From: an uncultured Odoribacter sp. | GTDB lineage: Bacteria; Bacteroidota; Bacteroidia; Bacteroidales; Marinifilaceae | Length of the DNA stretch: 11,015 nt | Assembly (NCBI GenBank): GCA_905204385.1 | Contig: CAJKZL010000068.1 | Coordinates: forward strand, 1 to 11,015 | Direction: 5' to 3' | Part shown: one piece after another, positions 993-7,319 of the stretch | Numbering within the stretch: the first letter of the stretch is position 1 | How the letters are laid out: each line of letters opens with the position of its first letter | Notes under the pieces: generated by a model | Seen by the model: only the letters and a program-made list of their open reading frames with translations | Databases searched by the model: none | What the model was told of the DNA's origin: nothing | Program-made: the position numbers and the translations under genes

Positions 993-1310
993 ATGGAATT
1001 TTTAGAAAATTATAATTTAACAGGCTTGGTGATCGGAATTTGTACTTTTTTGATTATCGGCCTCTTCCATCCCGTGGTCATCAAGTGTGAGTATTACTTT
1101 GGAACTCGCTGTTGGTGGGTTTTCTTAGCCTTGGGGGTAGTGGGAATTGTTGCAGCCCTTTATGTGAAGGAGATTTTCTGGTCTTCCCTTCTGGGCGTTT
1201 TTGCTTTTTCTTCTTTTTGGACCATATTGGAAATCTTTGAACAGAAAGAAAGAGTGAAAAAAGGATGGTTTCCTATGAATCCGAAAAGGGAAAAGGAGTA
1301 TGAGGGGTGA
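993..1310 (+). CDS. DUF4491 family small membrane protein
   Basis: This is a 105-residue inner-membrane protein that I recognise as DUF4491, a family known mainly from Bacteroidetes and without an established function. It has three hydrophobic stretches: about residues 10-27 (around LVIGICTFLIIGLFHPVVI), 40-57 (WWVFLALGVVGIVAALYV) and 62-80 (FWSSLLGVFAFSSFWTIL). The family-typical stretches HPVVIKCEYYFGTRCWWVF and FEQKERVKKGWFPMNPKR are both present. The basic C-terminal tail (KERVKKGWFPMNPKREK) should face the cytoplasm. The length is normal for the family. A thioesterase gene follows 62 bases later on the same strand, across an AT-rich repeat, so the two may share a transcript. No function is assigned. 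Confidence 0.9.
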   Translation: MEFLENYNLTGLVIGICTFLIIGLFHPVVIKCEYYFGTRCWWVFLALGVVGIVAALYVKEIFWSSLLGVFAFSSFWTILEIFEQKERVKKGWFPMNPKREKEYEG

Positions 1311-1317
1311 GATAAGA

Positions 1318-1354
1318 GATTATAGATTAAAGATTATAGATTAAAGATTAGAGA
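1318..1354 (+). repeat. AT-rich tandem repeat, copy 1
   Basis: The 14-base unit GATTATAGATTAAA occurs twice in a row (1318-1331 and 1332-1345) and is followed by a partial unit GATTAGAGA. The 23 bases at 1332-1354 match 22 of 23 bases of the minus strand at 6388-6366, in the cysD-cysN gap. In both places the repeat reads in the same direction as transcription of the flanking genes, immediately before the leader of the next gene. It looks like a dispersed intergenic repeat of this genome; its function is unknown. Confidence 0.75.
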
Positions 1355-3305: not shown

Positions 3306-4412
3306 TTAGAGCTTATAATTCCATTGTTCCAATGCATAGGCCCAATGCTTTTCCACCAGTTCAATGGTACGGGGCTCGTATTTATAAGTATTTTTCTTAT
3401 AGCCTTTTTTCTTGTCCAGGTAAGCGGTTATGTCGGCTTTGGCATTTTCGAAACCGGGAATGGCCAGGGTTCGGTAGATTTTTTCGGTCATCCCTAGGGC
3501 ATCGGCTTCGAAATCTTCGAATTTAATTTCAATAAGGTTGCCTTCCGGGATGAGCTTTTTCTCTTCCTCATAGGCGCGGTATAACCGGGTAGAGACCTCC
3601 AGAATGTTCTTTTCCATTTCTTCTGCAGAAATTTTCTGGAGTTGCAATGGCAGGATCGTATTGCTGAAAAAGCTGCGGGTAGACTCAAAGACGGTATAAG
3701 GGTTTCGCATCAGGTAAATGAATTTCGCATTCGGGAACATTTCCAGTATTTCTTTCATTTTCCCGGTATGCGGCGGATTTTTACTGAGGAATTGCTGGCC
3801 CTTGGTATTCCATAAGGAAATTTTAATCAACTTTAGGAAGGTATCTTTGAAAATCCGGTGTTCCTCTGCCGTAGCCGTTTTCATCGTCAGGAAACGGTCG
3901 CAATATTCCAACATATTCTGGGGCAGAAACCAAAAATTATAATACGAACTAGACATCATGTTGGACAAGGCAAACTCTTCTTCCTGAGGTAGGTCGACGT
4001 TTAGCTCCATATTGTCGGTCGGGCGTTTATCCGGCATCAGCCATGCCATGGTTTTCTTAAACATGGGCTGTCCCCACATCATCAAATGAGGAAAAACGGT
4101 TTGATAGGTAGTGGTATAACCGAAATGCTTGTCATGAGCCAATACGTTGTGTACGAAAGTGGTTCCGCTGCGCCAATGACCCAGAATAAAGACGGGTTCC
4201 TCATTGATGTCCTTGTCCCTCAGACGTTTCCGGTACCTGCGATCCTGTATGGGTTTTAGTGAACTCATTAACCGGCATATGGCTTTAGTCAGTTGATATT
4301 TGGTTTTATACCCTTTTTCTATTTTTTGTCCTTTTGTAATCCCTTTAAATGTTTTCCAGTCTGCCCCCACCAAAGTATTTACCGGCAGTTTTTGAAATTC
4401 GAGTAAACCCAT
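3306..4412 (-). CDS. PAPS-dependent sulfotransferase (Sulfotransfer_3-like)
   Basis: This 368-residue enzyme should transfer the sulfonate group from PAPS to a hydroxyl acceptor. The 5'-phosphosulfate loop is clear: PVFILGHWRSGTTFVHNVL, with GHWRSGTT at residues 78-85. The 3'-phosphate motif follows at KFIYLMRNPYTVFESTRSFF, with Arg236 and Ser244 in the expected positions. PQEEEFAL (142-149) and LSKNPPHTGKM (209-219) are further family-type blocks. No signal peptide or membrane segment is evident, so it is cytoplasmic or peripheral. It is the last gene of the PAPS-producing operon, which argues that the operon exists to feed this enzyme. From memory, a similar arrangement in Bacteroides thetaiotaomicron (BT_0416 region) sulfonates cholesterol and other steroids; that makes sterols a candidate acceptor, but a lipid or glycan acceptor is equally open. 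The start ATG lies 4 bases from the repeat-bounded cassette upstream, which forms its leader; no Shine-Dalgarno site is seen. Confidence 0.9.
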   Translation of the reverse strand: MGLLEFQKLPVNTLVGADWKTFKGITKGQKIEKGYKTKYQLTKAICRLMSSLKPIQDRRYRKRLRDKDINEEPVFILGHWRSGTTFVHNVLAHDKHFGYTTTYQTVFPHLMMWGQPMFKKTMAWLMPDKRPTDNMELNVDLPQEEEFALSNMMSSSYYNFWFLPQNMLEYCDRFLTMKTATAEEHRIFKDTFLKLIKISLWNTKGQQFLSKNPPHTGKMKEILEMFPNAKFIYLMRNPYTVFESTRSFFSNTILPLQLQKISAEEMEKNILEVSTRLYRAYEEEKKLIPEGNLIEIKFEDFEADALGMTEKIYRTLAIPGFENAKADITAYLDKKKGYKKNTYKYEPRTIELVEKHWAYALEQWNYKL

Positions 4413-4416
4413 ATTG

Positions 4417-4461
4417 AAGTAACGATTAGCTTACAACCGGAGGTTGTAAAAGTAACGATTA
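4417..4461. repeat. Hairpin-centred terminal repeat, left end of cassette
   Basis: Two direct copies of the 12-mer AAGTAACGATTA lie at 4417-4428 and 4450-4461. Between them is a perfect 8-base-pair hairpin, TTACAACC (4431-4438) with GGTTGTAA (4442-4449), loop GGA. The inner copy contains the stop codon of the four-helix-bundle gene; the outer copy ends 4 bases before the sulfotransferase start codon. The same design in inverted orientation is found at 4824-4863. Confidence 0.85.
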
Positions 4462-4815
4462 ATGATTAGAATAATAATTGCGCAATGCGCTGATTTGAGC
4501 ACTGATTTTTTCTATTTTCTTTCTGATTGCTGTCAAGTTATTGTCATTTATATATCCTAATTTATTTCCTAAGATTAAATGGTTCATTGTTTCCATTAAG
4601 CTACTATAAGCAATGGTAAGAAAATGGGCTTTGTCTTTACTGGTTTGCCTGGAATTTCCTTCGGATATATTGGCAGGAACAGCGGAAGCTGCTCTTCTGA
4701 TTTGATCCGTTAAAGAAAATTGTTCTGTTTTAGGGAATGTCTCTGTTAACAGGTAAATGTTAACAGTGAAATCCATTGCTAATTGCCAAACTTCGAGTTT
4801 TTCAAAAGCGAACAT
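4459..4815 (-). CDS. Four-helix-bundle protein, 23S rRNA IVS / S23 family
   Basis: This 118-residue protein belongs to the family first seen encoded in intervening sequences of 23S rRNA genes (IVS, S23, TIGR02436-like). It begins with FEKLEVWQLAMDFTVNIYLLTETF, continues with the family hallmark LTDQIRRAASAVPANISEGN (about residues 35-54) and FLTIAYSSLMETMNHLILGNKLG, and ends in a long helix through IRKKIEKISAQISALRNYY. Four amphipathic helices are expected, assembling as a pentamer in structures known for the family; its biochemical role is not established. It is not near any rRNA here. It stands alone between cysN (42 bases) and the sulfotransferase (46 bases), enclosed by mirrored hairpin repeats; its stop codon is inside one repeat. 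It is more AT-rich than the cys genes around it. It looks like an inserted cassette rather than a functional part of sulfation. Confidence 0.88.
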   Translation of the reverse strand: MFAFEKLEVWQLAMDFTVNIYLLTETFPKTEQFSLTDQIRRAASAVPANISEGNSRQTSKDKAHFLTIAYSSLMETMNHLILGNKLGYINDNNLTAIRKKIEKISAQISALRNYYSNH

Positions 4816-4823
4816 ATTCTTTT

Positions 4824-4863
4824 ATCGTTACTTTGGTAAGCGTAGCTTACCTCATCGTTACTT
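4824..4863. repeat. Hairpin-centred terminal repeat, right end of cassette
   Basis: Two direct copies of ATCGTTACTT lie at 4824-4833 and 4854-4863. They enclose a perfect 7-base-pair hairpin, GGTAAGC (4835-4841) with GCTTACC (4845-4851), loop GTA. The 10-mer is the reverse complement of the one bracketing the left end. The outer copy includes the last lysine codon and the TAA stop of cysN (minus strand AAG TAA, 4863-4858). Confidence 0.85.
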
Positions 4864-6282
4864 AATAATTTTCACGCTTACCCCCATCCTGTCCAGTTCC
4901 CGGGCTACTTTTTCTACGGCTTCGTAATGTTCGGGGGAGATACCGAGTTTGGACAGATGGATTTCGGGAATTTCAAATTCCTGCAAATCTTTCATCTCCA
5001 CCTTGTCGATAATCATTCCGACAGCACAGGTGTTGTTGGTCATGGGATCGATCAGAATAAAAGCTCCGGTATTTTTATTTTTGGCGTAAGGATCGAAAAA
5101 TAAAGGTTTGCCTGTGGTGAAAATCACCCGGGCAATCTCGTTCAATTCCAGGGCTTCGCTGGAAGATTGCTCCATGGTGTTTACATTTACCTTATATTTG
5201 ATTTTATCGATCTTCACCCGGGTCAGGTTAGTGGTATGTTTGATGAAAAACTGTTCCTGAGGATCCATTTTTTTCTCATCCATCCACACCAGCATCGCTT
5301 CAAAATTACGGTCGATGAGAGGTAAATTGTCGGGATGTACCAGCATTTCTCCCCGGGAGATATCGATTTCGTCCTCCAGGGTGAGAGTGACAGCCTGGGG
5401 AGGGAAAGCGTAATCCATTTCTCCGTCGTAAGTGACTATCGATTTTACCCGCGATCTTTTCATAGAGGGTAATGCCACCACTTCATCCCCGGTACGGACA
5501 ATGCCTGAGGCAACGCTGCTGCTGAATCCCCGGAAATCCAGGTTCGGGCGCAGGACATACTGCACAGGAAAACGGAAATCGGTAAAGTTCTGATCACTGC
5601 CGATCTGTACGGTTTCGAGAAACTCCAACAAAGGTTTGCCGGTATACCACATCATGTTTTCCGATGATTCAACCACATTGTCTCCTTTGAGAGCGGATAA
5701 GGGAATACAGGTAATGTCCGGAATATTCAGGGGAGTCGCAAACTCACGGTAAGTATCGACGATGCGGTCGAAAACATTTCGATTGTAGCCTACCAGGTCC
5801 ATTTTGTTCACTGCCAGCACCACATGTTTAATCCCCAGCAAAGAAACGAGATAGGTATGGCGGCGGGTTTGGGTGATCACTCCCGAGCGGGCATCCACCA
5901 GGATAATTGCCAGGTTGGCTGTCGATCCGCCGGTGATCATATTCCGGGTGTATTGCTCATGTCCCGGAGTGTCGGCGATGATAAATTTCCGTTTGTTGGT
6001 GGAAAAATAGCGATATGCCACATCGATGGTAATCCCTTGTTCCCTTTCGGCTTTCAGGCCGTCCAGCAATAAAGCGTAATCGATATTGTCGCCCGCATTG
6101 CCGTAGCGTTTGGTATCTCTTTCCAGTGCATCCAACTGATCTTCATAAAGTTTTTTACTGTCGAAAAGCAACCTTCCGATCAATGTGGATTTCCCGTCGT
6201 CCACCGACCCCGCAGTTAAAAGCCGTAAAAGGTCTTTCTTTTCATCCTGATCCAGGAATTCTTTTATATTTAGTTTTTCCAT
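4858..6282 (-). CDS. cysN: Sulfate adenylyltransferase GTPase subunit CysN
   Basis: CysN is the GTP-hydrolysing large subunit of ATP sulfurylase; with CysD it drives formation of adenosine 5'-phosphosulfate from ATP and sulfate. The 474-residue length matches a stand-alone CysN (about 475), so there is no fused APS kinase. GTPase motifs are in order: G1 GSVDDGKST (25-33), a switch region with [13 protein letters not shown] (81-93), G3 DTPGHE (104-109), G4 NKMD (159-162) and G5-like SALKG near 198. EF-Tu-like beta-barrel domains follow ([19 protein letters not shown] onward). The final Lys codon and stop lie inside a repeat that begins the four-helix-bundle cassette. It lies 128 bases downstream of cysD, a gap holding the AT-rich repeat. 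The start ATG at 6282 has an A-rich leader (AGAAGAAATC). Confidence 0.96.
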
Positions 6283-6317: not shown

Positions 6318-6388
6318 TATAGATTAAAATCGATCGTTTTCTCTTCCTTTATCTATTATCTTTAATCTCTAATCTTTAAACTATAATC
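6318..6388 (-). repeat. AT-rich intergenic repeat in the cysD-cysN gap
   Basis: On the minus strand, positions 6388-6366 match the plus-strand repeat at 1332-1354 in 22 of 23 bases. Further degenerate units (AGATTAAAG, AGATAATAG) follow in the downstream direction. A short copy in the opposite orientation, TATAGATTAAA, lies on the plus strand at 6318-6328 and could pair with 6361-6368 over 8 bases (AGATTAAA with TTTAATCT). It occupies much of the otherwise empty cysD-cysN gap. Confidence 0.7.
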
Positions 6389-6410
6389 TATCAACTTTCA
6401 TCTTTCCTTT

Positions 6411-7319
6411 CTAAAAATACCCTTCTCTTTTTTTCTGTTCCATGCTGGCATCCTGGTCGAAGTCGATCACCCGCGTGGTGCGTTCCGACTTGGTTGTGGT
6501 CATCATTTCTTCCACAATTTTTTCGATGGTATCGGCTTCCGATTCCACTGCTCCCGTAAGAGGCCAGCAACCCAGGGTGCGGAATCTTACTTTTCGCATT
6601 TGTACTTTGTCGCGGTATTGTTCGGGCATCCGTTCGTCGTCGGGCATGATCAGATTGCCGTCGATCTCCACAATGGGCCGTTCCTTGGCAAAATACAGGG
6701 GAACGATAGGAATGTTTTCCATGCGAATATATTGCCAGATGTCCAATTCGGTCCAGTTGGACAGGGGAAATACCCGGATGGATTCTCCTTTATGAACCCG
6801 TGCATTATAAAGATTCCACAATTCGGGGCGCTGATTTTTGGGATCCCATTGGTGAAACTTATCCCGGAAAGAGTAAATCCGTTCTTTGGCTCGGGATTTT
6901 TCTTCATCCCTGCGGGCGCCCCCGAAGGCTGCATCGAATTTATATTTGTCCAGGGCCTGGAGTAAAGCCTGGGTTTTCATGAGGTCTGTGTGGACTTTAC
7001 TGCCGTGGGTAAAGGGACCTACCCCTTCGTGAAAACATTTCATGTTCGATTCCACAATGAGATCCCAATTGTTATCCCGGGCATATCGGTCGCGGAATTC
7101 AATCATTTCTTTAAATTTCCATTTTGAATCGATATGCATGAGCGGAAAAGGAACTTTTCCCGGATAAAAAGCTTTCTCGGCCAGCCTGACCATGACGGAA
7201 GAATCTTTTCCTATCGAATAGAGCATCACTGGATTTTCAAATTCTGCAACCACTTCACGGATAATGTGGATGGATTCAGCTTCCAGTTCTTTTAAGTGAC
7301 TTAGTTTATATTCTGACAT
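6411..7319 (-). CDS. cysD: Sulfate adenylyltransferase catalytic subunit CysD
   Basis: CysD is the small, catalytic subunit of ATP sulfurylase and adenylates sulfate to APS; CysN, next in the operon, supplies GTP-driven energy. The protein is 302 residues, the usual CysD length. It belongs to the PAPS-reductase-like PP-loop family, with the ATP-binding loop SIGKDSSVM at 35-43. Other typical CysD stretches are [20 protein letters not shown] (59-78), [26 protein letters not shown] (about 128-153), [16 protein letters not shown] (about 183-198) and [15 protein letters not shown] (about 247-261), ending in the common KKREGYF. The [14 protein letters not shown] block clearly separates it from the related PAPS reductases (CysH). 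It is preceded by a 124-base gap with a hairpin. Confidence 0.96.

What the first reader, a model, noticed from the sequence alone, without database searches (positions are those of the whole stretch)
4417..4863. IVS-family gene enclosed by mirrored hairpin repeats inside the sulfation operon
The cysN-sulfotransferase junction is entirely made of a 447-base unit: an IVS/S23 four-helix-bundle ORF with, at each end, a perfect hairpin between two direct copies of AAGTAACGAT, the two ends being inverted to each other. The stems differ (TTACAACC/GGTTGTAA versus GGTAAGC/GCTTACC), so the 10-mer brackets rather than the stems are what is conserved. This looks like a small non-autonomous mobile cassette that carries an IVS protein gene, with hairpin ends that recall REP/REPIN or single-strand-transposed elements. 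IVS proteins have no known role, and a defined DNA boundary would be a clue to how they spread.
Basis: partly seen in the sequence, partly recalled or inferred. Interest (0 to 1): 0.72.

Follow-up and report, generated by a model that had tools for sequence, protein, structure and literature searches.

The report
Mobile IVS cassettes with heptad-repeat arms
A small gene of a family without a known role sits between two mirrored sets of short DNA repeats, and comparison across bacteria indicates that gene and repeats move in and out of operons as one unit, each gene lineage with its own repeat.

Summary
Double bracketed hairpins occur only in the window (1 of 195 IVS genes). What is general: IVS (PF05635/S23) genes sit between arms of degenerate, mostly seven-base repeats that are inverted copies of each other (143 of 195 genes, against 12 of 210 control genes and 3.6% of unrelated mispaired arms). 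The repeat unit follows the IVS protein lineage rather than the host genome. The cysN–sulfotransferase junction is empty in two of the three closest relatives found and holds an IVS gene with other arms in the third, whose genome also has solo arrays of that unit. At four sites elsewhere, flanks more than 85% identical carry IVS genes only 56–78% identical; in one, only the cassette was exchanged. The window itself holds two solo heptad arrays. Best explanation: IVS genes are the coding members of a class of small mobile hairpin elements with cognate heptad arms. The enzyme that moves them is unknown. Eight searches of open-access papers found none linking IVS genes to heptad repeats.

The parts
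4417..4863 (-). whole IVS cassette: outer repeat copy to outer repeat copy, filling the cysN-sulfotransferase junction
   Evidence: junction empty in L066 and L068, refilled in L067
4459..4815 (-). IVS/S23 four-helix-bundle protein gene (118 aa), PF05635 / TIGR02436
   Evidence: PDB relative 2GSC XCC0516, E 3.5e-21
4417..4459 (+). 3' arm of the cassette (relative to the IVS gene): two AAGTAACGAT copies with hairpin TTACAACC/GGTTGTAA between them; heptads CGATTAA TGATTAG run on into the end of the IVS gene (to 4468)
4824..4863 (-). 5' arm: two AAGTAACGAT copies (rc) with hairpin GGTAAGC/GCTTACC between them; the outer copy supplies the cysN stop codon 4858-4860
1310..1351 (+). solo heptad array, six AGATTAW-type units, beginning on the stop codon of ORF 993-1310; no IVS gene
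   Evidence: lag-7 identity 0.86 in 1283-1373
6348..6403 (-). solo heptad array, eight AGATTAW-type units, in the cysD-cysN junction; no IVS gene
   Evidence: lag-7 identity 0.80 in 6333-6418
4858..6282 (-). cysN (host operon gene upstream of the cassette)
   Evidence: GTP_EFTU
3306..4412 (-). sulfotransferase (host operon gene downstream of the cassette)
   Evidence: PF13469

Best explanation
The 447-base unit is an IVS cassette: a small mobile (at least exchangeable) hairpin element. Its only gene makes the IVS/S23 four-helix-bundle protein. Its ends are arms of degenerate heptad repeats that are reverse complements of one another, so that a transcript or a single DNA strand folds into one stem with the gene in the loop. 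The IVS protein and its arm sequence form a cognate pair that moves together; gene-less arrays and hairpins of the same unit are its non-autonomous relatives. Cassettes settle at gene junctions of operons, in the best-resolved cases from the stop codon of one gene to just before the start codon of the next, mostly co-directional with the neighbours, so they are transcribed with the operon without breaking a gene. Shown here: the anatomy, its generality, the match of unit to protein lineage, the concerted evolution of the two arms, empty and refilled sites, exchange limited to the cassette, solo arrays, purifying selection on the protein. Inferred: that the IVS protein binds its own arms, and that strand transfer is done by an enzyme acting in trans, not identified (a reverse transcriptase is a lead only, because IVS is distantly akin to Avd). 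The two bracketed hairpins are a peculiarity of this copy.
For: Matched inverted arms: 143 of 195 IVS genes score >22 against 12 of 210 control genes and 3.6% of 5000 unrelated mispaired arms; 29 of 43 representatives below 50% identity. Autocorrelation peaks at 7, 14 and 21 nt, with controls at 0.015 or less at every lag from 2 to 25. Unit tracks protein at non-syntenic sites: about 1% below 50% identity, then 10%, 28%, 50%, 82%; same-genome pairs below 50% identity share arms in 3 of 121. Arms co-evolve: own beats cross in 73 of 73 syntenic pairs of 50-60% identity and in 15 of 16 sites. Empty and refilled junction. Exchange in closely similar flanks: 22 of 59 pairs, four sites; mosaic L139. 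Solo arrays: G301 six places besides its only IVS; GTAGGCA 20 places besides 5 IVS loci in 5 genomes. dN/dS 0.05-0.17 in 10 of 12 chosen pairs.
Against: 52 of 195 IVS genes have arm scores of 22 or less. Direct, not inverted, flank comparison also exceeds the high score of 37 in 19 of 195 genes, against 60 of 195 for the inverted one. Most Bacteroidales cassettes are long-lived at conserved sites, so movement is rare. One of 16 sites has cross better than own by 19, and the own-cross difference vanishes at 80-90% identity. G347 has YGATTAA arrays but no IVS hit. The reversed control patterns were not clean: 5 hits in 4 of 56 genomes, 10 hits in 2 of 398. No target-site duplication or recombination enzyme was found, and no movement was observed directly. 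Sites, pairs and genomes are related to one another, so counts of pairs are not independent events.
Confidence: 0.62

Rival explanations
1. The arms are kept for RNA processing: they form a double-stranded stem that RNase III cuts, releasing the IVS RNA from the operon transcript as in rRNA IVSs. The cassette is then a tolerated RNA insert and the arms have no role in movement.
For: Arms pair and co-evolve; rRNA IVSs have a 28-bp terminal stem cut by RNase III (PMC4990558, passages). Mostly co-directional insertion in operons (131 of 175 with both neighbours).
Against: Pairing alone does not explain why the unit follows the protein lineage at unrelated sites, why gene-less arrays of the same unit are scattered, or the heptad period. 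It is compatible with the best explanation as a second role.
Confidence: 0.15
2. Ordinary homologous recombination between related strains swaps IVS alleles together with flanking DNA; there is no element-specific movement.
For: In L139 the donor-like allele sits at the same site in G332; most IVS sites are conserved across genomes. L139/L142 share outer arrays that could serve as homology.
Against: In L139 the flanks are 94-100% identical to G339 over most of their length and 52-94% to G332, while the gene is 82-100% identical to G332 and 52-78% to G339; imported flanks are missing. It does not explain matching arms at non-syntenic sites or solo arrays.
Confidence: 0.12
3. IVS is a host or defence accessory gene (for instance CRISPR-associated), and the repeats are unrelated slippage-prone intergenic DNA.
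For: IVP genes in cas loci were reported as a CRISPR-linked function (PMC3936711, passage), and PF05635 as the commonest Pfam of a defence-linked set (PMC10053308, passage). Purifying selection. cas6-cas4 and cmr2-cmr3 neighbours here.
Against: Neighbours also include a nuoC gene, a succinate dehydrogenase/fumarate reductase gene pair, cysN-sulfotransferase, ribonucleotide reductase and a conjugation-type gene cluster, with no common function. The unit follows the protein, not the genome, and control genes lack matched arms.
Confidence: 0.06
4. One reading: hairpin ends recognised by a REP/RAYT-type or IS200/IS605-type Y1 transposase.
For: The window has hairpins on both sides. Y1_Tnp is present in 30 of 41 IVS-positive but 1 of 15 IVS-negative family genomes.
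Against: Bracketed hairpins in 1 of 195 IVS flanks; 11 of 41 IVS-positive genomes without a Y1_Tnp hit; G301's single hit, a weak one (E 5e-9), has no GATTAA heptads around it. Genome size confounds the co-occurrence.
Confidence: 0.05

Closest known systems
rRNA intervening sequences (IVS) with S23 ORF, e.g. Coxiella and Leptospira
   Same: Same protein family; ORF of about 118-125 codons inside a stem formed by terminal inverted repeats; sporadic distribution; mobility and a role of the ORF in it were proposed before (PMC4990558, passages)
   Different: Lies in a protein operon, not in an rRNA gene; arms are heptad-type with dispersed gene-less relatives; RNase III excision untested
REP/REPIN elements with RAYT (TnpA-REP)
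   Same: Works-like parallel: one coding copy per lineage, scattered gene-less copies of the same short repeat
   Different: No Y1 transposase in the cassette; heptad arrays rather than a fixed palindrome; 11 of 41 IVS-positive genomes have no Y1_Tnp hit
Heptad repeat arrays: GGGAATC in Xanthomonas and Nostoc heptads (PMC4692102), TAACTGA in Beggiatoaceae (PMC4679880), cyanobacterial STRR (recalled)
   Same: Intergenic degenerate heptads, sometimes as inverted pairs, sometimes overlapping gene ends (passages)
   Different: Those papers do not mention S23/IVS (term search 0); here the arrays flank IVS genes and match the IVS lineage; one GGGAATC-armed IVS gene, probably frameshifted, found in G630
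Avd, accessory protein of diversity-generating retroelements
   Same: Weak homology: DivGenRetAVD 24.4 bits, bAvd 20.6 bits; likeness of 2GSC and 4DWL stated in PMC10053308 (passage)
   Different: Below both family cut-offs (80 and 40 bits); no reverse transcriptase or repeat pair was noted in the window, and none was searched for by profile
MITEs and small non-autonomous transposons
   Same: Short, inverted ends, scattered copies
   Different: No conserved terminal sequence shared with a transposase element, and no target-site duplication seen

Membership tests
IVS/S23 protein family (PF05635, TIGR02436) | Profile match above the curated cut-off | tested here: met
   129 bits against 33.8; 120.3 against 24
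IVS/S23 protein family (PF05635, TIGR02436) | Motif GxxRxxxSxxxNxxE (motif as given in PMC3936711) | tested here: inconclusive
   R41, N49 and E52 are present; the conserved S45 (97% of 87 rows) is A in the window
rRNA intervening sequence | Lies inside an rRNA gene | tested here: not met
   Lies between cysN and a sulfotransferase gene
rRNA intervening sequence | Terminal inverted repeats forming a stem | tested here: met
   Predicted outer and inner stems; inverted pairs 4449-4468/4815-4834 and 4417-4429/4851-4863
rRNA intervening sequence | Excised from the transcript by RNase III | not testable with these tools
   Needs RNA from cells
REP/RAYT system | A Y1 (RAYT) transposase whose own flanks carry the same repeat | tested here: not met
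   Tested in the relative G301: its only Y1_Tnp hit has no GATTAA heptad in 2.6 kb. The window's own genome is not held
REP/RAYT system | Hairpin ends shared between copies | tested here: not met
   Bracketed hairpins of 7 bp or more in 1 of 195 IVS genes
DGR accessory protein Avd | Match above the Avd model cut-off | tested here: not met
   24.4 bits against 80
MITE / classical transposon | Target-site duplication | tested here: inconclusive
   None seen by eye at the cysN junction or; no base-level empty/filled pair was available

The most novel reading that the evidence does not exclude
IVS/S23 genes are the coding members of a widespread, undescribed class of homing-like mobile elements whose ends are lineage-specific arrays of degenerate heptad repeats. 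Protein and arms co-evolve as a recognition pair. The classical rRNA IVSs are one special case, and many of the unexplained heptad arrays of bacteria are their gene-less offspring.
Probability: 0.5. Interest if true: 0.92.

Novelty: new variant of a known kind. Interest (0 to 1): 0.82.

Why it matters
S23/IVS proteins have been known since 1993 (the Ralph and McClelland reference as cited in PMC3936711) and have a solved structure (2GSC), but no known role. Heptad arrays have been reported separately, also without a cause. Linking the two makes both testable: each IVS protein should recognise its own arm unit. It also warns that IVS genes inside CRISPR or other operons need not be working parts of those systems, and it supplies defined ends, exchange events and solo copies with which movement can be assayed.

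Tried and rejected
Exact bracket AAGTAACGATN{6,36}AAGTAACGAT: 14 IMG/VR loci, with stems of at most 5 bp and no IVS gene in the loci, so unrelated; 0 of 56 family genomes, with 1 reversed-control hit. IVS protein in IMG/VR: 58 candidate stretches, none confirmed. L126 as a polymorphic site: outside the IVS gene it matched nothing in 9 other genomes, uninformative. An extra empty site with L302: no match in G217 or G117; in the other genomes almost only repeats matched. Hairpins as a general IVS feature: rejected; stems of 7 bp or more on either side in 16 of 195 IVS genes, 15 of 195 shuffled, 40 of 210 controls; on both sides 1, 0 and 3. Prediction that genomes with GGGAATC arrays carry IVS genes with GGGAATC arms: 3 of 398 genomes have the arrays (reversed control 2 of 398); G630 yes, but its IVS matches only positions 1-64 of the profile and looks frameshifted; G760's IVS has no GGGAATC run in 2.3 kb; G598 is not among the IVS-positive genomes. 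Single-linkage clusters collapsed into one of 188, so 43 greedy representatives were used instead. Published or recalled heptads looked for in the arms: only TTGGTCA was found, in L143, L145, L158. In my draft I counted five exchange sites; a recount showed four, because two lists were the same site. Literature: searches found no paper tying IVS genes to heptad repeats (open-access PMC only).

Rows dropped before counts: one search dropped L041 (short flank). One search was given 211 loci, found 211 IVS ORFs in 207 of them, kept 207 records after flank filters (window included) and 195 after removing duplicates. The loci are mostly the best-scoring matches of each search (30 loci, some of them shared, plus 60 more places taken by hand from the list, and 12 of 36 plasmid records), so weak or broken IVS genes are under-sampled. 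One search had only 11 control genes; one search used 210. In one search pairs in which neither member scored 25 were left out. dN/dS was computed for 12 pairs chosen by hand: 10 gave 0.05-0.17 (two of them with dS above 1), L182/L185 gave 1.16 with almost no changes, window/L111 was saturated (pN/pS 0.21).

Full report
1. Check of the observation. The ORF is a full-length member of PF05635/TIGR02436. In the minimum-energy fold of the transcribed strand the two ends pair: an outer and an inner stem made of the 10-mers, with the two unlike hairpins facing each other. The outer copy holds the cysN stop codon, and the left end lies 4 nt from the sulfotransferase start codon, so the cassette fills the whole junction. 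The neighbours upstream in the operon are an APS-kinase gene and a PAPS-reductase-family (cysD-type) gene.

2. The arms are general. A scan of public genomes for the IVS protein gave 21 loci; by eye most had short repeats on both sides, inverted to one another and different between lineages; in the later test 12 of 19 of them passed. I then took IVS loci from 11 genomes behind those loci, from the family of the closest relative (41 of 56 genomes with IVS), Planctomycetota (58 of 119), Pseudomonadota (52 of 299) and 12 of 36 plasmid records, eleven of them cyanobacterial. This gave 195 distinct IVS genes with usable flanks. The 150-nt upstream flank matches the reverse complement of the downstream flank with p<0.05 (100 dinucleotide shuffles) in 147 of 195 and with score >22 in 143 of 195, against 12 of 210 control genes and 3.6% of 5000 unrelated mispaired arms. 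By group, score >22: Bacteroidales 68 of 88, Planctomycetota 21 of 28, Pseudomonadota 23 of 28, plasmids 7 of 12, other 23 of 38, window 1 of 1. Direct comparison of the two flanks has a median score of 17, though 19 of 195 exceed 37, as do 60 of 195 in the inverted comparison. Among 43 representatives (below 50% identity, not syntenic), 29 have matching arms. The flanks show autocorrelation peaks at 7, 14 and 21 nt and a lesser one at 8; control flanks stay at or below 0.015. Typical heptads are GTAGGCA, GGGAATA, GATATGA, AGCTNCA and YGATTAA (units read by eye); some lineages use 8 or 9 nt. 52 of 195 genes show no clear arms.

3. Unit and protein belong together. For pairs of IVS genes without detectable flank homology (within about 1 kb), the share with matching arms is about 1% below 50% protein identity, then 10% (n=940), 28% (n=175), 50% (n=48) and 82% (n=11) for the 50s, 60s, 70s and 80s. 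IVS genes of one genome with proteins below 50% identity share arms in 3 of 121 pairs, against 1.1% between genomes. So the unit follows the protein lineage, hardly the genome. Within a site the two arms fit each other better than the arms of the orthologue: own beats cross in 73 of 73 syntenic pairs of 50-60% identity, in 82% of 68 in the 60s, 67% of 39 in the 70s and 47% of 34 in the 80s; by site in 15 of 16, the other one going strongly the other way. The arms therefore evolve in concert.

4. The cassette comes and goes. Among 30 sulfotransferase loci (best of 52 genomes with a hit out of 295), tblastn finds an IVS gene in one, L067; in 23 of the 30 a cysN gene lies beside the sulfotransferase. 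L066 (88% identical sulfotransferase) and L068 (82%) are empty, with 33 and 32 nt between the genes; L067 (81%) has the IVS gene, 71% identical, with other arms; L070-L073 have 14-17 nt, L069 has 79 nt; L080 has an 86-nt gene-less inverted heptad array. In most of the rest the tblastn match ends before the cysN end, so no clean junction could be read. The genomes of L066 and L068 (G217, G117) have no IVS hit at all, and G301 (L067) has only this one.

5. Cassettes are exchanged. Of 59 syntenic pairs whose flanks are both more than 85% identical, 19 have IVS genes 56-66% identical at the nucleotide level, 3 are at 76-78% and 37 at 83-100%. The 22 low pairs come from four sites. In L227/L235 the divergent tract runs from the stop codon of a nuoC gene (PF00329) to the start of the next gene (nuoD-like by my reading; no Pfam hit for its first 80 residues); in L098/L103 it lies between a succinate dehydrogenase/fumarate reductase flavoprotein gene and its iron-sulfur subunit gene; in L139/L142 it lies inside shared outer arrays. 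L139 is a mosaic: flanks 94-100% identical to the sibling G339 over most of their length and 52-94% to G332, gene 82-100% identical to G332 and 52-78% to G339, the switches falling in the 100-200 nt outside the gene on either side. Import by homologous recombination would be expected to bring flanks along.

6. Solo arrays. (GATTAAY)3 occurs in 2 of 56 family genomes: G301 at 7 places, one of them its sole IVS gene, and G347 at 4 places without an IVS hit; the reversed control has 5 hits in 4 genomes. (GTAGGCA)3 occurs in 5 of 8 IVS-bearing genomes tried, at 25 places, 5 of them IVS loci; of the three genomes without it, two have other arms and one (G729) degenerate arms of a similar kind; reversed control 0. 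Several solo copies are array, short spacer, inverted array (by eye), that is, cassettes without the gene. The published GGGAATC heptad (PMC4692102) occurs in 3 of 398 Pseudomonadota genomes (reversed control: 2); in G630 inverted GGGAATC arms flank an IVS gene that looks frameshifted, while G760's IVS has other flanks and G598 has no IVS hit. The window itself has two solo arrays, 1310-1351 and 6348-6403, unit AGATTAW, close to but not the same as the YGATTA unit in the cassette arms.

7. How it most likely works. The protein is kept by selection (dN/dS 0.05-0.17 in 10 of 12 chosen pairs), is mostly co-directional with both neighbours (131 of 175 by a simple ORF rule that misjudges some, L227 for one), has near-invariant Q38, N49, E52 and E75 and a well-kept R41 (87 rows) and is distantly akin to Avd. 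I infer that it recognises its own arms, as RNA stem or DNA, and that strand transfer is done by an enzyme in trans, not identified. A Y1 transposase is unlikely, although Y1_Tnp genes are commoner in IVS-positive genomes (30 of 41 against 1 of 15), which are also mostly larger.

8. What is known. Seen as passages only: rRNA IVSs with inverted repeats, RNase III excision and earlier mobility proposals (PMC4990558); IVP genes in cas loci (PMC3936711); PF05635 as commonest Pfam of a defence-linked set and its likeness to Avd (PMC10053308); IVP in rRNA insertions of CPR bacteria, with ORF-less insertions at the same kinds of site (PMC11270868); heptad arrays (PMC4692102, PMC4679880; term searches there for S23, four helix and intervening gave 0). 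No paper linking IVS genes with heptad repeats came up in the eight searches; subscription journals are not covered.

9. Verdict. By membership it is an IVS-family gene outside rRNA; the heptad arms, their match to the protein lineage and the solo relatives are the new part.

Noticed in passing
window 1310-1351 and 6348-6403: Two solo heptad arrays (AGATTAW) at other gene junctions of the same window, one beginning on a stop codon; their unit is close to but not the same as the YGATTA unit in the arms of the IVS cassette.
   Followed up: partly
G347 (loci L291, L293, L299, L301): YGATTAA arrays at four places but no IVS hit: loss of the coding copy, or an incomplete assembly.
   Followed up: no
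G301:C105 and other contigs (L332): A second, unrelated repeat family (query 1258-1317 of L302:900-2300) is scattered over G301 and G347, with copies 1.3-1.5 kb from the genome's only Y1_Tnp hit; it may be a RAYT/REP pair of its own.
   Followed up: no
L338 (G760:C1:326300-327600): A very long perfect GGGAATC tandem tract; the genome has 209 overlapping triple-unit hits, while its IVS gene has no GGGAATC run nearby.
   Followed up: no
G710 and G728: The reversed control pattern of GGGAATC hit only these two genomes, and both carry IVS genes, so the 'control' may itself be a heptad array.
   Followed up: no
L244, L245, L248: IVS genes inside cyanobacterial CRISPR operons (cas6-cas4 twice, cmr2-cmr3 once), the setting that earlier papers took as a CRISPR link.
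   Followed up: partly
L333 13408-13428 (G301): G301 has a further YGATTAA-type array in the cysC-cysD junction of the same sulfation operon; the window has none there.
   Followed up: partly
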